The translations under genes were made by a program, and so were the position numbers. Below the pieces are notes generated by a model. It did not search any database and was not told where the DNA came from. It was given only the letters and a program-made list of their open reading frames with translations. A stretch of DNA of 64,000 nt, from NCBI RefSeq assembly GCF_016907535.1, contig NZ_JAFBCF010000001.1, forward strand, positions 868,001-932,000. Reading direction: 5' to 3'. This stretch comes from Microlunatus panaciterrae. Lineage in GTDB: Bacteria; Actinomycetota; Actinomycetes; Propionibacteriales; Propionibacteriaceae. Shown in pieces: positions 31,909 to 48,109 of this stretch; position 1 is the first letter of the stretch, and each line of letters starts with the position of its first letter.

Positions 31909-34900
31909 TCAGCTCGCAGCGACGAAAACTCCACCTGCGGTCCGGGCCAGATCGCCACGGTCGAGCGCCATCTGCAGGCCCACCTGTAGCCGCTCGCGGA
32001 TCGCGCTCGTCAACCGGCTGCCTCCGAAGACGACGTTCGTCTCCCGGAGCAGATCATCCTGCGTCATCCCGGCGGCCTCACGGCAGAGAAAGACCATGGC
32101 ATTGCCAATCTCCCGAAGGCTGATGTGCTCGATCGGTCGCTCGCTGCCCGACTGCTGTCGGCGATACCCGGACCAGCTGGCCTGGTCGACGTCGCGTGGC
32201 CAGGCGAAGGGCTCCCCCGCGCGGTCCCACAGCTCTCGCGGAACCGTCTGCAGAATCGACTGGGCCCGACCTTCACTGAGCCGGTTGAGGTCGAAGCTGC
32301 GCGCAACCAGACGGGCCAGTCGGTCGGCGTGGACGGGACCCTCCTGTTGCACGACCTGCTCCACTACCTGGCGAACCTGCGCCGTCGCCCGAGCTGCCGG
32401 CAGCCCGTTCAGCACGCCTCGCGGGCCGACGATGGTGGACGGCCATGCGGCGAAGCGGTTGTCCTCGTTGCGCGTTGCGGTGCGACGAAGTGCCTCCGTA
32501 ATTGGCCCTTCGACAGGCTCAGGGCGCGGGGATCTGGGCTCAGGGCGCGGAGCTCCAGGCTCAGGGCGCGAGAATCCGGGCTCAGCACGCCCTTCGACAG
32601 GCTCAGGGCGCGGAGCTCCGAGCTCAGGGGTACGCCCTTCGACAGGCTCAGGGCGCGAGAATCCAGGCTCAGGGCGCGAAGATCCAGGCGCGGCGGTACG
32701 CCCTTCGACAGGCTCACGGCCCGAGAATCCAGGCTCAGGGCGCGGGGCTCCAGGCTCGGGGCGGGCGTCCGGCTGCTCGACCGCCCGGATCAGCCGCTGG
32801 ATGGTGGGCTCCGGATCGCGCAGCCAGGCGGGCAGCCAGACCCGTTCCACGGCGGGCCAGCGAAGCATCCGGGACAGCACCTCGATCGGCAGGCCGTCGC
32901 GGTCACCGACGGTGCCGCGCCTGGCCCAGTCCGGGCCGTCGAGCAGGACAGCGAGCCGCGGGGCATCGGGTTCTGCGGCGCTGGCGACCTCGAGATCGAT
33001 CTTGAAGTCGGACAGCCCGACATTGGTGCTGACCACCAGACCGCGCTGCCGCAGCACCTCGGCCACCTGTTCGCGGTGCCGGTCGGGCAGGCTGGGGCGC
33101 CGCTGTCGGGTGACCAGAGACTCGAGCACCTGGGGCCCGGAGGCTGCCATGTCCAGGTACGCCCGCAGGTCCTTGATTCCCCGCGAGGACGTCTCCTCGG
33201 TCCGCAACTGCTGAGGGTCGAACGAGGAGAAGACGATCACCCGTCGGCGGGCGCGGGTGACGGCCACGTTCAGCCTCCGCTCGCCGCCCTCCCGGTTCAG
33301 CGGCCCGAAGTTGAGAGGCAGCCTGCCGTTGTGGTCGACGCTGAACGCGGTGGAGAAGAAGATCACGTCCCGCTCGTCGCCTTGGACATTCTCCAGGTTC
33401 TTCACGAACAGGCCGTCATCGGCGTCGTCCAGCGCCTCGAGGATCCGGTCGTCGCCACAGTCACGCAGCAGCGACTCGATCAGCGTCCGCTGCTGGATGT
33501 TGAAGGTGACGATACCGATCGACGGCAGAGTCTGTGGGGATCCGTCGAAGCGGCGTCGCACCTCGGCGACGATCGTCTCGGCCTCCACCGGGTTGGTGCG
33601 ATGCAGCTTTCCACGGGTGCGCTGGAACTCCCCCTGCACCCGGACCAGGCTGACCCCGACGTCGTCCACCCCGTCGGCCGCGGCGCGGCGATGCGGCGCC
33701 GGGAAGGAGGACAGCCGATCCTCGTAGTACAAGGCGTTGCTGAACGCGATCAGCGACTCGTCCTGACTGCGGTAGTGCCACGACAACCACTGCTGTGGCA
33801 CCCGCGCCTGGACGCACTCGGACAGGATGCTCTCCTCGTCCTCCACCACGCTGAGCGTGTCGGCCAGCTCGGCGAGCTCCTCGTCACCGATGTCCAGCGA
33901 CGGTTCGCCGAAGCTGGTCGGAGGCATCTGCTTGGAGTCTCCGACAACGACGACCGACTTTGACCGGCCGATCGCCCCGATCGCGTCCGCGACCCGGATC
34001 TGCGAGGCCTCATCGAACACCACCAGGTCGAACAAGCCCTGCTGGGCCGGAAAGAACCGAGACAGCGAGTCCGGGCTGACCAGCACACACGGCATCACCT
34101 GGGTGATCAGGTCGCCATACTGCGCCACCAGGCTCCGCACGGTCAACCCACGCCGCTGTTTGCTCAGCTCGCGGCGGAGCGAGCCGATGCGTCCGGACTC
34201 GTTGGACGAGTTGAACGGCCGGTTGGCCAACACCTGATGTGGCAGCAGCGCGGCCTGCTGCGCTCGCAGCGAGGCGGCGGACATGGTGAACCGGCTGATC
34301 GTCTTGTCGTGCACCTGCGGATCGAAGGCGGCCAGCCCCGTCGCTCCAGACCGCTCGGCCAACGACGCTGTGGCCACACCCAGGTCGAAGGCCTGAACCG
34401 CGTCGTCGGCGCGCACGCGTCCGGTCAACAGCGCGGTCCGGGTCGCCGCCAGGCCAGCCTGCCGGATGGGTTCCAGGGCGGCGACGAAGGCGATCCAGCG
34501 CCGCAGATCGAGCAGCTGCGGGTCATCAAGGTCGCGCTGACCCGTACTGTTTCGCCACGTGGTGACCAGACCGCAGCCGGCGGACCATGACGCCGCGTCC
34601 TCCGGTGATGCTGCTGTCACAGCCTCCAGCCGGGTGAAGGCCGCGACCAGCGCGCCGAGGCTGCCCAACTCGTGCTGGCCCAGTTGCCGGCCGGGGCCCA
34701 GAAAGCTGCGCAGGGACGGGCCCACCGGCCGGTCAGAGTCCGGGGCGACACAGGCGGAGGCCCACTGAAGCCATCCAACCTGTGCGTCCAGCTGCTCGGT
34801 CGCGGCAGGCGTCAGCGGGTTCCAGTCCTGCGTGATCATGATGCCCGGGATCTTGGCGGCCTGCCGGCCCAGATCCCACGCCAACTGCTGGGTCTGATGC

Positions 34901-37900
34901 AGCTCGGCGACCAGGACTGGCACGTCCTTCGGTTTCACCGACGCCTCCGGACGCAGACCGGGGCGCAACTGCTCGAGTACCGCCTTGAGCCGCTTGCGCC
35001 GGCCGAAGAAGCCCGAGGCAGCCGCCGCCTGCGCCTGCTCGAGGATCTGTGCCAGCGGCAGGTTCAGCACCGCCGGCGTGGCCAGATGCATACCGGGATG
35101 CTGCGTCGCTGCGAAGTCGACGGTGCGAGAACGTACGTCGTCCACCGCTGGCCGCCAGAACGGTCCCCGAACCTCGTCGAGTACCCACAGCTGCCCCTGT
35201 GGACTGGTGAGGATCTGGTTGACCATGGCCAGCTCCTGCGCGTTGCCCACCTGGTCGAGCACGTCGGCCAACGGATGATCACCGGGAATGGCGGCAACGG
35301 CGGCGTCGACGGCGCGGGCCGCCTGCCGGATGGCGTCCGGATCGGCACGCTGCGGGTCCATCGCGCCGACGAACCCCCACGGGTGCTCGGGCCTGGGGTT
35401 GGCCAGATCGGCGGTGTCCGGAAGGTCACGAAGGACGGTGCGGATGGTCGCGGTGCGGTCAGCCGCCTCGGGAGCGCCTACCAGATGCGGCGGCACCGGC
35501 AGCTCCTGGCTCAGGTGTCCGAGCGCGAGGCGACCGGTGTGGGCCGAGTAGAACGACAACCCTGCCGGGTTGGTGGAGTGAATGCTCCGTGCATACCGGT
35601 CGAGGCTCTGCCGGGTCGCCCGGAGGCGTTCCTGCTCCGCCGCGAAACCTTGCGCGTCGATGTCGATCCGGGCGTCCAGTGCCTGCCGGATCTGGTTGCG
35701 CACCACCACGGGTTTGCTGCCCTTGTCGTGCAGGTCAAGTGAGAAGAGGCCCATACCTACGTCGTCCAGCCGTTTGCGGACGACGTCCAACGCCGCCCGC
35801 TTCTCGGCGACGAAGAGCACCCGCTGGCCCTCCGCCATGGCCCTCGTCAGCAGGTTGGTGATCGTCTGTGACTTGCCCGTGCCGGGAGGACCCTCCAGGA
35901 CGAACGTCCTGCCGGCCACGGCGGCGGCGACCGCCGCGAGCTGGGAGGCGTCCGCCGGCACCGGACAGGCGGCAGCAAGCTCGTCCAGGTCGATGCCCTT
36001 CGACAGGCTCAGGGCGCGAGGATCGGGGCTCACGGCGTCCGGATCGATGCCCTTCGACAGGCTCAGGGCGCGAAGATCAGGACTCGGGGCGTGGGGATCA
36101 GGGCTCAGGGCGCGAGGATCAGAGCTCAGGGCGCGGGGGTCCTGAAAGGTTTCGGTCGGGGTCTCGATCAGGTGCCGGACCAGCGGGTTGGCGCTGAAGG
36201 CCTGCCACTGCTCGTCCAGGTCCTTCCAGAGCCGGAACTTGGCGAACTGCAGCACGGCCACATGGGCGGTCTCCTCGACCCGGTAGGGCAACCCGGCCTG
36301 GTTCACCGCCAGCCTGACCGACTGGAGGGCGGCGTTCAGGTCGATGCCGGCCGCATCATCCTCTGGCTCGGACAGGTCGGGGATCTCCAGCCCGTGCACC
36401 TGGCGCAGCTTCTCCAACAGACAGAAGTTGGGCGCGCTGGTGCCGCTCTCGTCCAGGCCGATCCGGTACAGCCCACCGCGCCCCGCAGGCTTGAGCTGCA
36501 CCGGCACCAAGATCAACGGGGACCGCAACGGACGACCGTCCAGTTTCCACACCAGCGAGCCGAGAGCAAGATAGAGGTTGTTGGCGCCGCTCTCCTCCAC
36601 GATCGTGCGGGCCTTGTAGGCCAGGTTGCGCATTCGGGTGGCATAGCCACCTGCCGGAATGTCGCAGAACAGCTGCGCCCGGCCGGTCAGCAGGGCTGCC
36701 CGATCGTCGGCCGGCAGCTCCCAACCGGAGACGAGTCCACGCGCCGTGTGCACGGCGTCGATCTGGTCGCGGGCCAGCAGCGTCACCTGCTTGGGCTCGT
36801 TGACGATGTCCTCCAGGGCGCCCAACTGACCGTCCGGAACCGACAGGGCCAGTCCTGAGCGGTCGGAGAAGTTGATCAAGCGATTCCGCAGCGACAGGTC
36901 GAGCAGGGCGTTCTTCCAGTTCTGCACCCGCGGCGGCGCCTCGACGCGGCCCCCAGCGGTGCGGCGCGCTGCGCTCCGGTCCGGGGCATACCCCGCCGGT
37001 CCCGATACCGCTGGACGGTACTCGAAGACCTGCACTGTGTCGTCGGTGCCGCGGACCCGGGCCGGCAACGGGATGATGCGGTTCCGGCGTGCCTCATAGA
37101 TGTCGATCACGCCCTGCACCCGGTCGGCGTCGCCAGTGAGGTACTCCGCATATGGCCCGCGCTGCAGCCCGGCGAGGTCGGTAGGTCCCTGACCAGCAGT
37201 GATCAACGTCGTCTCGATCAACCCGACAGCCTTGAGGTCGATCAAGTTGATCAAGGCCGAAGGGTCGGTTGCCAAGACGTCCTGCATGGACGCCTCCATC
37301 CGCCAGTACCCGAGGAAGGCATGGCCCTGGACCAGGAAGACCAGCGGCCTGATGCCTGCCTGCTCCAACACGGCAGCCAGGGCGAGCGTCAGGTCGAGGC
37401 AGGTGCCCAGCGGGGTGTCGAAGACCTCACCCGGAGTCCTGATCTTCTGCCCCACGTCGGACCAGCTGGCCGGCGGTTCGGCGTAACGGATCTGCCGGCC
37501 GGCGGCCGCGATGACGACCGCGTTGACGATCTCGTCCACCCGCTGCTGGCCAGCCTGATAGCCCTCCAATGAGGGGCTGCCGGTGCTCCGGCCCAGAATC
37601 GTCGACGCCTCCACCAGCAGCCGCTCCACAGCCGGGTGGTTGGGCATCACGAACGAGGCGAGGATCTCGTCGGTGACGGCTGATCCGTTGCGCAGCCACT
37701 GGTTGGCCGCCAGAATCCGCACCGGGACCTGGCCGCGGCCCAGCAGCGCCTCACCATCACGCACCTCCACCTCGATGCTGCCGGGCCGCTGCTCCTCGAC
37801 CTGCGCCATCTGCCCGGGATCGAGCCGCACCGGGATGTCCCTGAGCACCGTCTGCTGGTCGGCCTCGAGGTCGGCGGGGGTCTCGAACGGCTCGCTCAGC

Positions 37901-38182: not shown

Positions 38183-39070
38183 TCACTCGGGTGACTGCCG
38201 CGCCTCGAGCAGTCGCACCATCGCGCTGGTGTCAAGGGACCCGAGGCCTGCGGCCTGTGCCGCGGCGTTGGCTCGGACGACGGCCTGAGCGACCGGAGGC
38301 TCCAGTCCGGCCCCCTCGATCATGGCCAGCGCCAACCGATTGTCCTTGGCCAGCAAGTCGATGGTGAAGGCCGGGCTCCAGTCGCCGGCGACCATCTTCG
38401 GGGCGATCTCCTTGAACAGGTTGCTGACCGAGGCTGCCCCGGACTCGGCCAGGGTGGTGTAGTAGAGCCCGGGGTCCAGGCCGAGGTGCGCTGCGGCACC
38501 CATGGTCTCGGCCGTGATCGCATTGATGGCTCCGAACATCAGGTTGTTGAGCAGCTTCACCATGTTGGCACTGCCCTGGTCGCCGACCCTGATCACCCGG
38601 GTCGCCAGTCCCTCGAGCACTGGCATCGCCTTGGCCAGGTCCTCCTCGGACCCACCCACCGGCAGCGTCCAGGCGCCGCAGCGGTGCGGCCGGCCGAGCA
38701 CCGGCGCATCCAGGTAGCCCGATCCGCGTTCGGCGAGGATTGCGGCCATCTCACGGGTGGTGTGGGGGTCGACGGTGCTCAGGTCGATGACCAGCTCCGG
38801 CGGTCGTGCAGCCGCCTGCAGACCGTCGGCACCGGCGACCACGGCCCGCACCTGGTCCGGGCCCGGCAGCGACAGCAACACGATGTCGGCCGCCGCCGCC
38901 ACTGCCGCCGCTGTGTCGGCGACCTCCGCGCCGGCCGCCCGCTGCCGCTCGACGGCGGCCTGGTCGAAGTCGCGCACCACCAGCCGATGGTGCCCGCGCA
39001 GGACGTCGGCAACAGCGGCGCCCATCATGCCCAGTCCGATGATGCCGATCACGCCGCGCTCGCTACCCAC
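38183..39070 (-). CDS. Beta-hydroxyacid dehydrogenase (3-hydroxyisobutyrate dehydrogenase family)
   Basis: 295-residue NAD(P)-dependent beta-hydroxyacid dehydrogenase. The Rossmann motif IGLGMMGAAV is near residues 10-19, substrate-binding DLSTVDP near 96, and the catalytic lysine in MVKLLNNL near 169. The usual DAPVSGG loop reads DAPVLGRPHRCGAW, so the substrate pocket may differ from classical members. GTG start at 39070. It is divergent from a LarA-like gene, and an identical 11-base direct repeat precedes each, suggesting shared control of a hydroxyacid pathway. Confidence 0.85.
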   Translation of the reverse strand: MGSERGVIGIIGLGMMGAAVADVLRGHHRLVVRDFDQAAVERQRAAGAEVADTAAAVAAAADIVLLSLPGPDQVRAVVAGADGLQAAARPPELVIDLSTVDPHTTREMAAILAERGSGYLDAPVLGRPHRCGAWTLPVGGSEEDLAKAMPVLEGLATRVIRVGDQGSANMVKLLNNLMFGAINAITAETMGAAAHLGLDPGLYYTTLAESGAASVSNLFKEIAPKMVAGDWSPAFTIDLLAKDNRLALAMIEGAGLEPPVAQAVVRANAAAQAAGLGSLDTSAMVRLLEARQSPE

Positions 39071-39103
39071 GCCTATCCTCTCCGAAAGCGGTGGTGCATC
39101 CTG

Positions 39104-39178
39104 TTCAAGATCACCGGTCCACCGCCTTGTCCGATGTTGGCTGCACTGTAGCGAGGCTTTTCAAGATCACGCTAGATT
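39104..39178. promoter_or_regulatory. Paired TTCAAGATCAC direct repeats and -10 box
   Basis: TTCAAGATCAC occurs at 39104-39114 and 39160-39170, 56 bases apart, one in front of each divergent gene. A TAGATT -10-like box (39173-39178) directly follows the second copy and precedes the LarA-like gene; GGAAGAGG (39198-39205) is its Shine-Dalgarno. A common regulator for both genes is a reasonable guess. Confidence 0.55.
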
Positions 39179-39211
39179 GCGGTCGCCGACCACAACCGGA
39201 AGAGGTTCACT

Positions 39212-40633
39212 GTGCAGCGCGTACGGCTGGAGTCTGGAGATGGCCACGTCGACGTCGACCTTCCCGACCATGCCGTCGTGATCCAGGCCGGTGAGGCCGA
39301 ACACGAGCCGGTCGGCCTCGCCGATCCGGTAGGGGCGACCCGCTACGCGATCCAGCATCCCCTGGACAGCCGGCCTTTGCCGGAACTGGTCGGCGCCGGG
39401 TCGCGAGTCACGATCGCGTTCCCCGACCGGGTCAAGGGCGGCACTCAACCCACAGCGCACCGCAGGGTAACGATCCCGCTGGTGGTGGAGGAGCTGGAGC
39501 GGGCCGGCGTCCGCCGCCGGGACATCACCTTGGTCTGTGCCATCGGGCTGCATCGCAAGAACACCGCAGCAGACTTCGAGGCCTATCTCGGCCGTGACGT
39601 GCTCGACCTGTTCGAGCCGGAGCAGATCGTCAACCACGACGCCGAGGACCCCGACGGCATCGTCGCCCTCGAGCCGTCCGAGCTCGGCGACGTGGTCGAG
39701 ATGAACCGACTGGTCGCCGAGTCGGACCTGACGATCTTGATCAGTCACGCCGCCGGAAACCCCTACGGCGGGTTCTCCGGGGGATACAAGATGCCGTCCA
39801 CCGGCTTGACGACCTGGCGGTCGATCCGAGGTCACCACTCGCCCTCCAGCCTGCACCGCAGCGACTTCATCCCCATCTCGACCGGGAGCCGTTTCCGGCA
39901 CCAGCTCGCCGCCATCGGCCGGCGGATGGAGGCGGCGCTTCCCCAGCCGTTCTTCACCATCGACGCCGTCCTCAATGCGCGCTCCGAGCAGGTCCAGGTC
40001 CGGGCCGGCAGCATCCCCGCGGTGGAGCAGGCCACCTGGCCGACGGCCGGGCATCGGACCGAGCTGACCATTCCCGGAGAAGCGGCCGACATCCTGCTCG
40101 TCGGGATGCCGCGCAACTTCCACTACGGCAACGGAATGGGCTCCAATCCGGTGCTGATGATGCAGGCGATCGGCGCCTCCGTCGCCCGAGCCAAGGCCGC
40201 CCTCAAGCCGTATCCGGTGGTGATCGCCACGTCCGTCTGCGACGGCTGGTTCAACGCCGAGGAGTTCCCGTCCTACCAGCACACCTACGAGCTCCTACAG
40301 ACCGTGCACCGACCGGCGGACATGGTCAGCTTCGAGGACGAGGTCTGCACCGATCCAGGATATGTGGACGCTTATCGTCACCGCCTGGCCTATCACCCGT
40401 TCCACGCGTTCTCCATGATCTACATGGGCGGCCTGGCCCGTGAGCGGACCAGCGCCGTCTACATCGCGGGTGCAGCCAGCCCCGGGTACGCCCGCGGCAT
40501 GGGTGCGATCCCGACCCGCACCGTAGAGGATGCGCTGGCCGAAGCACGCCGGCACACCGGCAACGACGCCCGGATCCTGGTGGTCCCCAGCCTGTCCAGG
40601 CCGGCTTACCACCTCCGCTCAGCCACGGCCTGA
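39212..40633 (+). CDS. LarA-like nickel-pincer racemase family protein
   Basis: 473-residue member of the LarA (DUF2088) family. LarA binds a nickel-pincer nucleotide through a lysine and racemises alpha-hydroxy acids. Here IAFPDRVKGG near residue 68 is the N-terminal signature, GLHRKNT supplies the first histidine, ISHAAGNPYGGFSGGYK contains the SGGxK lysine, and IRGHH places a histidine 16 residues after it, the spacing I recall for lactate racemase. The LarB, LarC and LarE maturation genes are not in the window. GTG start with GGAAGAGG upstream. Substrate is likely a sugar-derived hydroxy acid, judged by its neighbours. Confidence 0.82.
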   Translation: MQRVRLESGDGHVDVDLPDHAVVIQAGEAEHEPVGLADPVGATRYAIQHPLDSRPLPELVGAGSRVTIAFPDRVKGGTQPTAHRRVTIPLVVEELERAGVRRRDITLVCAIGLHRKNTAADFEAYLGRDVLDLFEPEQIVNHDAEDPDGIVALEPSELGDVVEMNRLVAESDLTILISHAAGNPYGGFSGGYKMPSTGLTTWRSIRGHHSPSSLHRSDFIPISTGSRFRHQLAAIGRRMEAALPQPFFTIDAVLNARSEQVQVRAGSIPAVEQATWPTAGHRTELTIPGEAADILLVGMPRNFHYGNGMGSNPVLMMQAIGASVARAKAALKPYPVVIATSVCDGWFNAEEFPSYQHTYELLQTVHRPADMVSFEDEVCTDPGYVDAYRHRLAYHPFHAFSMIYMGGLARERTSAVYIAGAASPGYARGMGAIPTRTVEDALAEARRHTGNDARILVVPSLSRPAYHLRSATA

Positions 40634-40677
40634 CCCCGGCGTCAGGTCTCTGCCCGCCACCCGAGAAGGACTCCGCA

Positions 40678-42636
40678 ATGGCCACCGCCTCCGGCACCTC
40701 GATCTACTCCCGACCGCTGATCCTGCCGTCGTCGGAGTTGGGTGAGCTGAACCCCCTGCCGCCGCTGCGGCCGAGCCGGGAGATGCACACTCTGACCGAT
40801 CTGGACGGCCTGCCCGCAGACATGCGGGAGAACCTGGCGTACGGCCGGCTGGACACGGTGCTGCCCTACCTGCGTCAGGACGGTTACGACCGGCACCGGA
40901 GCCTGCGCGCCCAGCCGTCGATCGTGATGGAGAACGACCGGTTGCGGGCCACCGTCCTCCCTGGTCTGGGTGGGCGGCTGTACTCGCTGTGGCATAAGGC
41001 GACACAGCGTGAGCTGCTGTTCTGCAACCCCGTCCTGCAGTTCGCCAACCTGGCCCTTCGCGACGCGTGGTTCGCCGGCGGCGTGGAGTGGAACCTGGGC
41101 AGCACCGGTCACACCACCCTGACCTGTGAGCCGATGCACGCCGCCGTGGTGGATGGACCAGAGGGCGACCCGATCCTGCGCCTGTGGGAGTGGGAACGGA
41201 CGCGCGGACTGGTCTACCAGGTGGACCTCTGGCTGCCGGCGGACTCCGAGCTGCTCTTCGTCGGCGTACGGCTGCAGAATCCGCAACAGGTGGACATCCC
41301 GGTCTACTGGTGGTCGAATATCGCCGTCGCCCAGACACCCGGGCTGCGGGTCGTCGCCCCCGCCGACGAGGCCTGGCATTTCGGCTACGAGCAGCGCCTC
41401 CAGCTGGTCCGGTTGAACGACAGCGCGATCAGCTATCCGATGCGGCACCAGTCCGCAGCCGACTATTTCTTCGAGATCCCCGACGGCCAGCGCCGCTGGA
41501 TCGCCGGTCTGGACCAGGCGGGCAGCGGGCTGGTGCAGGCGTCGACGTCGATCCTGCGCGGGCGCAAGCTGTTCGTCTGGGGCGAGGGGTCTGGAGGTCG
41601 CCGCTGGCAGGACTGGTTGGCGCCTGGGGTGCCGGGCCATGGCTATGCCGAGATCCAGGCCGGCCTGGCCCGCACCCAGATGGAGCACCTCCGGATGCCG
41701 GCCGGCGCCAGCTGGGACTGGCTGGAGGCGTACGGCCGGATCGACGTCGACCCCGAGGCGGCTCACCACCCCGACTGGTCCCAGGCGCGACACGGTGTCG
41801 AAGACGTCCTGGACGGGTTGCTCCCCGACTCCGTCCTGACGGCCCGGCATCATCAGTGGCAGACCGTGGCGGAGTTGGGGCCCACCGGGCAGCGGCTCAG
41901 CACGGGCTCCGGCTGGGGCGCCCTCGAGCTGGCCAGACTCGCGGGAGAAGGCGCCGTCACCCTGGCCGGAACCCCCTTCCCGGCAGCGGACATCGCCGAC
42001 CCCCAGCAACCGTGGCTCGAGCTCGCCAGGACCGGCGCCCTTCCGGTCCACCCACCCGCACTGCCGCCCACCGGCACACTGTGGTCAGACCCGTGGTGGG
42101 CGTTGCTGGAGGCCGCACCCGACTCGTGGCTGGTCAGCTATCACCGTGGGGTGGCGCGCTGGTGCCGAGGTGACCGGGACGGGGCTGTGCATGCCTGGAC
42201 CCACTCGCTCGAGCTCACCCCGAACGCGTGGGCGCAGCGCAACCTTGCGGTGGCTGCGCTCGAGTCATCGGCCACCGGGGAGGCGCTGTCCCTGCTGCAA
42301 CAGGCCATCCTGCTCGACCCCGCATCGGTCCCGCTGCTGCTGGAGACGATCGAGACCGCGCTCGCCGCGGGGGCGGCTGAGGTCGCTGCCGAGCTGCTAC
42401 GCACGGTTCCTGAGGACCAGCGGCAGGACGGCAGGTTCCGGTTGGCCGAGGCCCGGACGGCGCTGCTGCGGGGTGACGCCGGAGCCGCTGCCGAGATCTT
42501 CGATGCCGGCTTCGACTATCCCAACCTGCGCGAGGGCGGTCGGATCCTGACCGAGACCTGGGAGGCGATCCAGCGGTCAATCGGGACGAGGCGGCCGCTG
42601 CCTGGTCGCTACGACTTCCGGATGTTCGACGGGTAG
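40678..42636 (+). CDS. DUF5107 / galactose-mutarotase-like protein with TPR-like C-terminus
   Basis: 652-residue protein. Residues ~80-340 form the mutarotase-like beta-sandwich of DUF5107, including RLRATVLPGLGGRLYSLWHK, GGVEWNLGSTGH and PVYWWSNIAV. The C-terminal ~150 residues are helix-rich and resemble TPR repeats (WCRGDRDGAVHAWTHSLELT, AVAALESSATGEALSLLQ). DUF5107 proteins are found with sugar-degradation genes but their reaction is not established. It follows the LarA-like gene by 44 bases, so it is likely co-transcribed. No signal peptide is seen. Confidence 0.78.
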   Translation: MATASGTSIYSRPLILPSSELGELNPLPPLRPSREMHTLTDLDGLPADMRENLAYGRLDTVLPYLRQDGYDRHRSLRAQPSIVMENDRLRATVLPGLGGRLYSLWHKATQRELLFCNPVLQFANLALRDAWFAGGVEWNLGSTGHTTLTCEPMHAAVVDGPEGDPILRLWEWERTRGLVYQVDLWLPADSELLFVGVRLQNPQQVDIPVYWWSNIAVAQTPGLRVVAPADEAWHFGYEQRLQLVRLNDSAISYPMRHQSAADYFFEIPDGQRRWIAGLDQAGSGLVQASTSILRGRKLFVWGEGSGGRRWQDWLAPGVPGHGYAEIQAGLARTQMEHLRMPAGASWDWLEAYGRIDVDPEAAHHPDWSQARHGVEDVLDGLLPDSVLTARHHQWQTVAELGPTGQRLSTGSGWGALELARLAGEGAVTLAGTPFPAADIADPQQPWLELARTGALPVHPPALPPTGTLWSDPWWALLEAAPDSWLVSYHRGVARWCRGDRDGAVHAWTHSLELTPNAWAQRNLAVAALESSATGEALSLLQQAILLDPASVPLLLETIETALAAGAAEVAAELLRTVPEDQRQDGRFRLAEARTALLRGDAGAAAEIFDAGFDYPNLREGGRILTETWEAIQRSIGTRRPLPGRYDFRMFDG

Positions 42637-45692: not shown

Positions 45693-45787
45693 CTCTTCGA
45701 CAGACGCAGAGTGCGGAGGGATAACGACCTGTCCCACTCTGCAGCCCACCTGCGGTTGGAAGGTCGCGGCGCGGCAGGATGGGACGC

Positions 45788-47029
45788 ATGAGGTCAGCGG
45801 AGTACCCACGGCGGGTGGCCATGATCAGCATGCACACATCGCCGCTGGAGACGCCGGGGGTCGGCGATGCGGGCGGGCTCAACGTCTACGTGGCCGAGGT
45901 CGCGCGTCGACTGGGAGCACGCGGGGTCGAGATCGACGTGTTCACCCGCCGCACAGACCCGAACACACCCGACGAGGTCTCTCCGCACGAGAACGTCCGC
46001 GTCATCCAGCTCGCCGCCGGCCCCGCCAAGGCCATGTCCAAGGAGGACCTGCCACCGCTGGTCAACGAGTTCGCGGCCCGGCTCGATGCGCGCACCGAGG
46101 ACTACGACCTGATCCACTCGCACTACTGGCTGTCCGGCCTGGCGGGGCTGGGGCTGGCGGCCCGCCGCGAGATTCCCCTGGTGCACACCATGCACACGAT
46201 GGCGCGGGTGAAGAACGCCAGCCGTGCCGATGATCATCTGGTCGAGCCGGACGTCCGAGAGGAGGGCGAGGCCGCCATCGTCCGAGCGGCCGAGGTGCTG
46301 ACCGCGAACACCCCGGACGAGGCGCTCGAGCTGCAGGAGCACTACGGCGCCCGCGAGGAGCAGCTGGCGATCGTGCCGCCCGGGGTCGACCTTGACCGGT
46401 TCCATCCCTGCAACCGATCACGCACCCGCGAGCAGCTCGGCATCGACCAAGATCATCAGGTGATCGTCTTCGTCGGCCGGATCCAGCCGCTCAAGGCCCC
46501 TGACGTGCTCATCCAGGCTGTCGGCGAACTGGTCCGTCGAGATCCGGAACGGCGTCACAGGTTGCGGTTGATGATCATCGGCAGCCCCAGCGGCCCGGAG
46601 TCCTCCTGGGCCGACACCCTTCCAGGTCTGGTCGGGTCGCTGGGTCTGGACGGCATCGTCGAGTTCCGACCGCACTCACCTCGCGACCAGCTGTTCCGCT
46701 GGTACTGCGCCTCCGATGTGGTCGGAGTGCCGTCCTACAACGAGTCGTTCGGGCTGGTGGCGCTGGAGGCACAGGCGTGCGGGCGGCCGGTGGTCGCGAC
46801 CGACGTCGGCGGGCTGAGGCACGCTGTCGATGACGAGAGCACCGGACTGCTCGTACACGGACACGACCCGGAGCGTTGGGCCGACGCCCTGTCCAGGATC
46901 CTGGACGACCCTGAGCTGGCGGTCGAACTCGGCCGCAACGCAGCCACCCACGCCGCCCGGTTCAGCTGGGACAACTCCGCCAAGGCCACCCTCGACGCCT
47001 ACCACAGCGCCCGGCTGGCCGTCTCCTGA
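45788..47029 (+). CDS. mshA: D-inositol-3-phosphate glycosyltransferase, MshA
   Basis: GT4 glycosyltransferase that joins GlcNAc to inositol 3-phosphate, the first step of mycothiol synthesis. The N-terminal ISMHTSPLETPGVGDAGGLN is the family hallmark and binds donor and acceptor; THTMHT-like VHTMHTMARVKN, VPPGVDLDRFHP and the E-x7-E region SYNESFGLVALEAQ follow. Length (413 residues) is normal. I place the start at the ATG at 45788 with AGGA eight bases upstream; an ATG three codons earlier is equally in frame. No other msh gene is in the window, as mycothiol genes are usually scattered. A mycothiol-type isomerase-family protein is encoded at 54971-55759. Confidence 0.88.
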   Translation: MRSAEYPRRVAMISMHTSPLETPGVGDAGGLNVYVAEVARRLGARGVEIDVFTRRTDPNTPDEVSPHENVRVIQLAAGPAKAMSKEDLPPLVNEFAARLDARTEDYDLIHSHYWLSGLAGLGLAARREIPLVHTMHTMARVKNASRADDHLVEPDVREEGEAAIVRAAEVLTANTPDEALELQEHYGAREEQLAIVPPGVDLDRFHPCNRSRTREQLGIDQDHQVIVFVGRIQPLKAPDVLIQAVGELVRRDPERRHRLRLMIIGSPSGPESSWADTLPGLVGSLGLDGIVEFRPHSPRDQLFRWYCASDVVGVPSYNESFGLVALEAQACGRPVVATDVGGLRHAVDDESTGLLVHGHDPERWADALSRILDDPELAVELGRNAATHAARFSWDNSAKATLDAYHSARLAVS

Positions 47030-47116
47030 CATCGGTCGTCCGCTAGCGTGGGCCCTGAACTTCGCCAGACCCCAGATCATGAACCGCCGACCCCCACTCG
47101 ATCCCCGAGGAGCCCG

Positions 47117-48109
47117 ATGACCTACGTCGCCGCCGACGACCGCTATGACGCCATGCCCTACCGCCGGGTCGGCACCAGCGGGCTGAAACTGCCCGCGGTG
47201 TCCCTCGGCCTCTGGCACAACTTCGGCAGCGAGAAGCCGTTCGAGGACCAGGGGGCCATCCTCCGCAGGGCCTTCGACCTTGGCGTGACGCATTTCGACC
47301 TGGCCAACAACTATGGTCCGCCGCCGGGCGAGGCGGAGCTGAACTTCGGTGAGCACCTGGCGCGCGACCTCAAGCCGTACCGCGACGAGATGATCATCTC
47401 GACCAAGGCCGGATACCTGATGTGGCCGGGCCCGTACGGGGAATGGGGGTCGCGGAAGTATCTCCTCTCCAGCCTGGACCAGAGTCTGAAGCGGATGGGC
47501 GTCGACTACGTCGACATCTTCTACTCGCACCGCCCCGACCCGGACACCCCGATGGCCGAGACGATGGGGGCACTGCACTCCGCAGTGGAACAGGGCAAGG
47601 CCCTCTACGTCGGTATCTCCAGCTATTCACCGGAGCAGACCCGGGAGGCTGCCGAAATCCTCGCCCAGCTGGGGACCCCGCTGCTGATCCACCAGCCGTC
47701 GTACTCGATGTTCAACCGCTGGGTCGAGGACGGGCTGCTCGACACCCTGGACCAGTTGGGTGCCGGCTCGATCGCGTTCTCCCCGTTGGCGCAGGGTCTG
47801 CTGACCAGCCGCTACCTGAACGGCATCCCGGCCGACTCGCGGGCGGCCGGCAACAGCCCCTTCCTCAGCGGCGAGCGGATCACCGAGGAGGTCCTGGGCA
47901 AGGTCCGGCCGTTGAACGCGATCGCCGAGCGGCGCGGTCAGACGCTCGCCCAGATGGCCATCGCCTGGGTGCTCCGCGGCGGACGCGTCACCTCGGCACT
48001 GGTCGGCGCCAGCAGCGTTCGCCAGCTCGAGGACAGTGTCGCGGCCACCCACAACCTGGAGTTCAGCGACGACGAGCTCGCGGAGATCGAGCAGTACGCC
48101 AAGGCCTAA
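47117..48109 (+). CDS. Aldo/keto reductase (YghZ-like)
   Basis: 330-residue aldo/keto reductase close to the YghZ/L-glyceraldehyde-3-phosphate reductase group. The catalytic Asp and Tyr are in THFDLANNYGPPPGEAE near residue 60, the Lys in ISTKAGYLMWPGPYG, a loop characteristic of this group, and the His in IFYSHRPDPDTP. Cofactor binding is in VGASSVRQLEDSV. GAGGAG precedes the ATG at 47117. The stop codon overlaps that of the convergent GH15 gene. A role in aldehyde or methylglyoxal reduction is possible but not proved. Confidence 0.88.
   Translation: MTYVAADDRYDAMPYRRVGTSGLKLPAVSLGLWHNFGSEKPFEDQGAILRRAFDLGVTHFDLANNYGPPPGEAELNFGEHLARDLKPYRDEMIISTKAGYLMWPGPYGEWGSRKYLLSSLDQSLKRMGVDYVDIFYSHRPDPDTPMAETMGALHSAVEQGKALYVGISSYSPEQTREAAEILAQLGTPLLIHQPSYSMFNRWVEDGLLDTLDQLGAGSIAFSPLAQGLLTSRYLNGIPADSRAAGNSPFLSGERITEEVLGKVRPLNAIAERRGQTLAQMAIAWVLRGGRVTSALVGASSVRQLEDSVAATHNLEFSDDELAEIEQYAKA

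What the first reader, a model, noticed from the sequence alone, without database searches (positions are those of the whole stretch)
38183..42636. LarA-like racemase locus with a shared repeat before both divergent genes
Seen: TTCAAGATCAC occurs once before the dehydrogenase and once before the LarA-like gene. A lysine and a histidine with the family's 16-residue spacing are present in the LarA-like protein. Inference: a hydroxy-acid pathway (racemase, dehydrogenase, DUF5107 protein) under a single unlinked regulator. The substrate is unknown and may be new for the LarA family.
Basis: partly seen in the sequence, partly recalled or inferred. Interest (0 to 1): 0.52.

Follow-up and report, generated by a model that had tools for sequence, protein, structure and literature searches.

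The report
Single-histidine nickel-enzyme gene with dehydrogenase partner
An actinobacterium carries a member of a recently described, still functionless branch of nickel-cofactor enzymes next to a dedicated dehydrogenase, and its relatives' gene neighbourhoods hint that this branch handles small sulfur-bearing sugar breakdown products rather than ordinary hydroxy acids.

Summary
The repeat is not a convincing operator: both copies lie on one strand of one 141-bp gap, 12 of 16 genome copies lie in frame inside genes, and 0 of 9 orthologous upstream regions keep it. The LarA-like protein is not a two-histidine hydroxyacid racemase: it has Asn183 where LarA has its second catalytic His, and is full-length kin (E 3e-124) of the single-His LarA_Sp/LarA_Bw, solved in 2025 without known function. 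larB, larC and larE are present elsewhere in the genome. New here: in 88 relatives the enzyme sits beside an LGRP-motif HIBADH-family dehydrogenase and/or an SDR (48 loci) or a TIM-like protein with altered phosphate stretches (27 loci), never both. TauE sulfite-exporter genes are enriched nearby (7 of 38 loci, 0.48 expected; 0 of 40 loci of other LarA homologues from the same genomes). I propose an NPN enzyme acting on a small anionic carbonyl compound, most likely a C3 sulfonate such as sulfolactaldehyde. The substrate is inferred, not shown; the window locus itself has no sulfur gene beside it.

The parts
38183..39070 (-). HIBADH-family (beta-hydroxyacid dehydrogenase) gene of the LGRP-motif subfamily, partner of the LarA-like enzyme
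   Evidence: PF03446 + PF14833; DAPVLGRPHRCGAW motif; LGRP in 38 of 39 proteins of this neighbour cluster
39071..39211 (.). 141-bp gap between the divergent genes, holding the 11-bp direct repeat
39104..39114 (+). TTCAAGATCAC copy 1
39160..39170 (+). TTCAAGATCAC copy 2
39212..40633 (+). LarA-like gene, single-histidine (Asn183) LarA subfamily
   Evidence: PF09861; E 3.4e-124 to 9q2u and 8.7e-116 to 9q3j; active-site residues by alignment
40678..42636 (+). DUF5107 + TPR protein, 44 bp after the LarA-like gene, possibly co-transcribed; not part of the conserved module
   Evidence: PF17128, PF14559; no homologue in 9 orthologous loci

Best explanation
The locus encodes a two-enzyme module: an NPN (nickel-pincer nucleotide) enzyme of the single-histidine LarA subfamily and a dedicated LGRP-type HIBADH-family dehydrogenase. 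Shown by sequence: the NPN-binding Lys193, nickel ligand His209, Asp72/Lys75, one catalytic His114, Asn183 in place of the second catalytic His, the subfamily residues His304, Tyr305, His398, and the genome's larEBC operon to make the cofactor. Inferred: His114 deprotonates a hydroxyl while the neighbouring C-H goes as hydride to NPN; because the second base is not at the LarA position, the reaction is not a symmetric two-His racemisation but uses another residue (His304 or His398) to invert, isomerise or eliminate. Inferred with less certainty: the substrate is a small (C3-level) alpha-hydroxy-carbonyl compound carrying a non-carboxylate anion, most likely a sulfonate such as sulfolactaldehyde or a 2,3-dihydroxypropanesulfonate derivative. 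HIBADH or SDR makes or uses it by oxidation-reduction; in other bacteria a TIM-like isomerase, in some loci with PFK and class II aldolase, takes that place.
For: Full-length kinship and residue match to LarA_Sp/LarA_Bw; eight of nine key residues invariant in 88 of 88 relatives, His304 in 87 of 88. Partner slot: HIBADH within 4.5 kb in 40 of 88 loci, SDR in 15 (7 shared with HIBADH), TIM-like in 27, none of these in 13; TIM-like with HIBADH or SDR 0 of 88 (P 7e-10 for no TIM/HIBADH overlap under independence, which ignores shared ancestry); the TIM label needs at least 4 changes on the tree. In 57 related genomes the HIBADH at 43% identity or more occurs only in 9 genomes, all with the LarA-like gene. 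Changed anion stretches: LGRP instead of SGG in HIBADH, aligning with GR of 3-sulfolactaldehyde reductase 6sm7; TIM-like keeps K/H/E but has YGGGLK and LVALTRF instead of the YGGS and LVGGAS stretches of TIM. Sulfur link: TauE within 5 kb in 7 of 38 loci, 0.475 expected from 210 copies in 167.8 Mb, Poisson 7e-7 (1e-5 with the two Moorella counted once); 0 of 40 loci of other LarA homologues from the same genomes, Fisher 0.005. PFK (PF00365) and class II aldolase (PF01116), found mainly in TIM-type loci, are the families of the sulfo-EMP2 kinase SqiK and aldolase SqiA (PMC9594981, passages seen).
Against: The window locus has no TauE beside LarA (nearest in G000 is over 1.2 Mb away); sulfur was noticed after the survey, not predicted before; 65 of 88 loci show neither TauE, sulfatase nor SulP; PFK, aldolase, PGI-like and TIM families also fit ordinary sugar phosphates; the LarA_Sp authors propose carbohydrate metabolism and modelled a phosphorylated aldose; the window HIBADH scores 151 bits against a 348-bit cut-off for sulfolactaldehyde reductase; no known sulfonate lyase or sulfoquinovosidase was identified among the neighbour clusters that I scanned.
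Confidence: 0.45

Rival explanations
1. The single-His LarA enzyme is an epimerase or isomerase of ordinary sugar phosphates or sugars; TIM, PFK, aldolase, NagB and PGI-like neighbours are a side branch of glycolysis for a rare sugar, and TauE is an incidental neighbour.
For: Context of LarA_Sp and LarA_Bw and the modelled phosphorylated aldose in PMC12611868; PFK, aldolase, PGI-like, RpiB, NagB, ROK in TIM-type loci; a GH29 fucosidase-like gene in L060.
Against: TauE excess over baseline and over 40 same-genome control loci; HIBADH and TIM-like partners have altered anion stretches; several HIBADH loci show little more than transport, HIBADH and LarA, which leaves no room for a sugar pathway.
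Confidence: 0.3
2. It is a 2-hydroxyacid racemase or epimerase like other LarA homologues, with the dehydrogenase oxidising one isomer.
For: Lar_N domain and NPN residues; the HIBADH family includes tartronate semialdehyde, threonate and hydroxyisobutyrate enzymes.
Against: Asn for the second catalytic His in 88 of 88 relatives; misses all LarA equivalog cut-offs; LarA_Sp had no lactate racemase activity (PMC12611868); Frankia LarAH14 had none of the tested activities (PMC7583248).
Confidence: 0.12
3. The enzyme is an NPN-dependent lyase that breaks a C-S (or C-O) bond after transient oxidation, releasing sulfite that TauE exports, so no separate sulfonate lyase is needed.
For: Compact gene runs TRAP-HIBADH-LarA-TauE (L113) and LarA-TauE-HIBADH (L134); authors of PMC7583248 suggest that homologues lacking His174 could catalyse another hydride-mediated reaction.
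Against: No chemical or structural evidence; other sulfonate lyases elsewhere in those genomes were not searched.
Confidence: 0.12
4. The 11-bp repeat is a binding site of an unlinked regulator of both genes, for example the AraC-family gene whose divergent gap at G000:860810 holds one copy.
For: 4 of 16 copies are intergenic, two here and one beside an AraC gene; AraC proteins often bind direct repeats (recalled).
Against: Motif absent from 9 of 9 orthologous regions; the AraC and the neighbouring PhyH gene have only 23-45% partial matches in orthologous loci.
Confidence: 0.08

Closest known systems
LarA_Sp (Streptococcus plurextorum, PDB 9q2u/9q3k) and LarA_Bw (Blautia wexlerae, 9q3j), single-histidine LarA subfamily, PMC12611868
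   Same: Full-length similarity (E 3.4e-124 and 8.7e-116); Asp73, Lys76, His115, Asn185, Lys195, His211, His306, Tyr307, His401 and Arg431 of LarA_Sp all have the same residue in the window protein
   Different: Actinobacterial, partner is HIBADH rather than glycolytic genes; the Arg431 equivalent (Arg428 here) is not kept in all orthologues; activity, NPN loading and octamer untested
Lactiplantibacillus plantarum lactate racemase LarA and malate racemase Mar2
   Same: Lar_N domain, NPN Lys, nickel His 16 residues later, first catalytic His
   Different: Second catalytic His replaced by Asn; phosphate-binding Arg replaced by Lys; only the N-terminal part aligns (Mar2 residues 3-268 of the query, E 1.3e-15; LarA 45-215)
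3-sulfolactaldehyde reductase YihU (6sm7) and tartronate semialdehyde reductase (1vpd), relatives of the partner dehydrogenase
   Same: NAD_binding_2/NAD_binding_11 fold; GR after the DxPV stretch shared with 6sm7 in the alignment
   Different: Distant (E 2e-31 and 1e-36); the LGRP motif with its shorter loop is not in the three aligned PDB relatives

Membership tests
LarA superfamily (NPN-dependent) | Lar_N domain over curated cut-off | tested here: met
   116.6 bits against 23.3
LarA superfamily (NPN-dependent) | NPN-binding Lys and nickel His 16 residues apart | tested here: met
   K193, H209; 88 of 88 relatives
LarA superfamily (NPN-dependent) | larB, larC and larE in the genome | tested here: met
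   LarB 262.8 bits (cut-off 175), LarC1 184.7 (90), LarE 236.1 (150) at G000:C1 about 2.636-2.639 Mb
LarA superfamily (NPN-dependent) | bound NPN cofactor and catalysis | not testable with these tools
   needs purified protein
Two-His 2-hydroxyacid racemases/epimerases (NCBIfam LarA equivalogs) | two catalytic His (108 and 174 of LarA) | tested here: not met
   H114 present, second is N183
Two-His 2-hydroxyacid racemases/epimerases (NCBIfam LarA equivalogs) | score over an equivalog cut-off | tested here: not met
   best 219.4 of 740 needed (LarAH14/15/16); all five listed are missed
Single-His LarA subfamily (LarA_Sp/LarA_Bw) | Asn at the His174 position with full-length similarity | tested here: met
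   N183; query 4-468 aligned to 9q2u 3-473, E 3.4e-124
Single-His LarA subfamily (LarA_Sp/LarA_Bw) | active-site Asp73, Lys76, His115, His306, Tyr307, His401 equivalents | tested here: met
   D72, K75, H114, H304, Y305, H398
Single-His LarA subfamily (LarA_Sp/LarA_Bw) | tail-to-tail dimer and octamer | not testable with these tools
   Arg at the dimer Arg431 position is present in the window protein but His, Gln or Glu in three orthologues
Sulfolactaldehyde 3-reductase (NF012005) | score over equivalog cut-off for the partner dehydrogenase | tested here: not met
   151 of 348 bits; so it is not filed as one, only possibly works like one

The most novel reading that the evidence does not exclude
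The orphan single-His LarA subfamily is a family of NPN enzymes for organosulfonates: it acts on C3 sulfonates (sulfolactaldehyde, its ketose isomer or dihydroxypropanesulfonate) made either by an LGRP dehydrogenase/SDR or by a TIM-like sulfo-triose isomerase downstream of a sulfo-EMP-like route, and in some bacteria it leads directly to sulfite release, possibly as a nickel-pincer-dependent C-S bond-breaking enzyme. The window carries the dehydrogenase-type version.
Probability: 0.28. Interest if true: 0.82.

Novelty: new member of a known kind. Interest (0 to 1): 0.52.

Why it matters
The single-His LarA enzymes have structures but no reaction. A recurrent, mutually exclusive partner slot, altered anion stretches in both partners and a sulfite-exporter excess give a concrete, testable substrate class. 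If true, it would bring the nickel-pincer cofactor into organosulfur turnover, where no LarA enzyme is placed in the papers I could search.

Tried and rejected
Shared operator: rejected as weak. AraC at G000:860810 as regulator: weak, no conservation. DUF5107 as pathway member: no homologue in orthologous loci, and only one paper of the library holds the name. Plasmid search for annotated relatives: no match at E 1e-30. Sulfatase link: the sulfatase-like cluster has 13 genes in 10 of 88 loci (named by Pfam from L060 and L068 only), but no baseline was taken and some lineages are sulfatase-rich, so I do not rest on it. Phosphonates or other oxyanions instead of sulfonates: not excluded (a PF01663 cluster in 6 loci; a chromate-transporter family protein in L068).

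Limits of the counts. The first pattern for the control proteins was wrong and was redone: 33 of 40 controls show His at the second catalytic place, 7 of 40 did not match the pattern and were left unclassified; all 40 score 153 bits or less to the single-His profile, against 692 or more for the 88. The 88 loci are 80 of 305 genome contigs relatives plus 7 orthologue loci and the window; L060 and L066 were left out as repeats of L069 and L078. HIBADH next to L061, L063 and L069 was added by hand (L069 being the same record as L060), because my ORF selection had kept an overlapping frame. L126 was left out of the tree (87 rows). The TauE baseline covers 38 of the 88 loci, chosen by me among those with longer flanks, and total genome length is my sum of rounded sizes. 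The 40 control loci are the better-scoring ones of the 134 Lar_N matches in those genomes.
Full report
What is there. The window is G000:C1:868001-932000 of a 4.07-Mb single-contig genome. A relative in the same genus (G012) has a contig of the same length as Microlunatus endophyticus NZ_BMMZ01000002.1, so the genus is probably Microlunatus (inference). At 38183-39070(-) lies a HIBADH-family dehydrogenase, at 39212-40633(+) a LarA-like gene, at 40678-42636(+) a DUF5107/TPR gene.

The repeat. TTCAAGATCAC is exactly at 39104 and 39160 on +. The genome has 16 copies, the reversed control none. Twelve lie inside genes drawn by my simple caller, all in frame 0; four do not: the two here, one in a gap between an AraC-family and a PhyH gene, one between ilvH and ilvC. 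An exact 11-bp or longer direct repeat is present in 633 of 20,000 random 141-bp stretches of this genome's sequence in hand. None of 9 orthologous upstream regions keeps the motif. I do not accept it as a shared operator.

The LarA-like protein. Lar_N scores 116.6 bits, but no NCBIfam LarA equivalog cut-off is reached. Against the PDB the best matches by far are 9q2u/9q3k (E 3.4e-124) and 9q3j (8.7e-116), then Mar2 at 1.3e-15. The two best are LarA_Sp and LarA_Bw, the single-histidine subfamily of PMC12611868 (parts 1-3 of 5 read). That paper reports Asn at the second catalytic His, Lys for the phosphate-binding Arg, new residues His306/Tyr307/His401, no detectable lactate racemisation, an unidentified 316.5-Da adduct and a guess at carbohydrate metabolism. 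The window protein has the same residues: D72, K75, H114, N183, K193, H209, H304, Y305, H398. Of these nine, eight are invariant in 88 of 88 relatives and H304 in 87 of 88. PMC7583248 (passages seen) remarks that homologues lacking His174 may catalyse another hydride-mediated reaction.

Cofactor genes. One larE-larB-larC operon lies at about 2.636-2.639 Mb on the minus strand, each over its NCBIfam cut-off. The genome has four Lar_N proteins, so the operon need not serve this enzyme alone.

The partner slot. Within 4.5 kb of LarA, 40 have an HIBADH, 15 an SDR (7 of them with HIBADH too), 27 a TIM-like gene and 13 none of these; TIM-like never occurs with HIBADH or SDR (0 of 88). Several of the 13 are on short contigs. 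On a tree of 87 LarA proteins the TIM label needs at least 4 changes by starred branches, so partners have been swapped more than once while the LarA active site stayed fixed. The HIBADH partners share DAPVLGRP or close variants with LGRP in place of the usual DAPVSGG: 38 of 39 proteins, the exception being a second copy in L074. In the PDB alignment the GR of this motif meets the GR of 3-sulfolactaldehyde reductase, where the other two relatives shown have SGG; that this Arg binds sulfonate in that enzyme is recalled, not seen in a call. In 57 related genomes the dehydrogenase at 43% identity or more occurs in 9 genomes and the LarA-like gene at 47% or more in 10, the tenth (G025) being TIM-type. 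The TIM-like partners keep NLK, GHSE (or near forms) and YEP, but carry YGGGLK and LVALTRF-like stretches where the solved TIM sequences read YGGS and, in one, LVGGAS. Which of these residues hold the phosphate in TIM is recalled.

The sulfur link. TauE/SafE genes occur within 5 kb in 10 of 88 loci and within about 8 kb in 13 of 88, in both partner types (of the 13: 6 TIM, 5 HIBADH/SDR, 2 neither); all 10 nearer ones are on the LarA strand. For 38 of the loci I took a baseline: 210 TauE matches in 38 genomes of about 167.8 Mb (my sum of the counts and rounded sizes) predict 0.475 within 5 kb; 7 were seen (Poisson 7e-7; 1e-5 if the two Moorella count once). As a matched control, 40 loci of other LarA homologues from the same genomes had 0 TauE, 0 LGRP-type HIBADH and 0 TIM-like genes (Fisher 0.005 for TauE). 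The TauE model was built from the positives, but it also found 5 genes not used to build it. The link was noticed after the fact. A SulP family gene lies near LarA in L118. PFK (PF00365, 7 loci), class II aldolase (PF01116, 9 loci) and a PGI-like protein (5 loci) accompany mainly the TIM type; PF00365 and PF01116 are the families of the sulfo-EMP2 kinase and aldolase (PMC9594981, passages seen). None of this is discriminating by itself, since ordinary glycolysis uses the same families.

Weight of the reading. For: two partners whose anion-binding stretches look rebuilt, one fixed NPN active site, sulfite exporters in both settings, and short gene runs such as TRAP-HIBADH-LarA-TauE (L113). Against: no sulfur gene next to the window locus, nearest TauE over 1.2 Mb away; 65 of 88 loci show neither TauE, sulfatase nor SulP; the published view of a sugar-phosphate context. 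I give the sulfonate reading about 0.28-0.45, depending on how far down the mechanism one goes, and near certainty (about 0.95) to membership in the single-His subfamily.

Novelty in print. Searches of the held library for LarA with nickel-pincer terms, LarA/nickel-pincer/sulfonate, DUF2088 or lactate racemase with sulfonate terms, and word searches in PMC9594981 and PMC12890257 showed no paper placing a LarA enzyme in sulfonate metabolism; only listings and these passages were seen, and subscription papers are mostly missing.

Distribution. In Actinomycetota the LarA-like gene is rare: 7 of 396 genomes at E 1e-60 or better, the window's own included.

Noticed in passing
window 40678-42636: DUF5107/TPR protein directly after LarA; its N-terminal part looks like the galactose-mutarotase type by eye (recalled resemblance); the only PDB match over that part is 5cd6, E 4e-12.
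   Followed up: partly
window 45779-48109: Mycothiol biosynthesis glycosyltransferase MshA, over its NCBIfam cut-off, followed by an aldo-keto reductase of the L-glyceraldehyde 3-phosphate reductase subfamily; a pirin gene lies just upstream.
   Followed up: no
window about 32500-33000 and 35900-36200: Dense repeated GC-rich motif (translating as runs such as RQAQG and RAQGARI) inside the 2052-aa helicase-like ORF; it looks like a short repeat family within a coding region (by eye).
   Followed up: no
L060 3863-7556, also L061-L063: In four Actinopolymorpha-type genomes LarA-HIBADH adjoins a FadR-type GntR regulator, a GH29 fucosidase-like protein and a sulfatase, with no obvious signal peptide by eye (Pfam for L060 only).
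   Followed up: partly
L068 1785-11728: One locus in the same family combines sulfatase, radical-SAM SPASM protein, chromate-transporter family protein, class II aldolase, PGI-like protein, LarA, TIM-like and PFK.
   Followed up: partly
PMC12611868 (LarA_Sp adduct): The unexplained 316.5-Da adduct is close to sulfoquinovosylglycerol minus two hydrogens (316.3 by my own arithmetic); many compounds fit, so this may be coincidence.
   Followed up: no
L009 1-1283 (G000 about 2.635-2.636 Mb): Two sugar-isomerase/epimerase-like ORFs lie beside the larEBC operon, judged from sequence look only.
   Followed up: no
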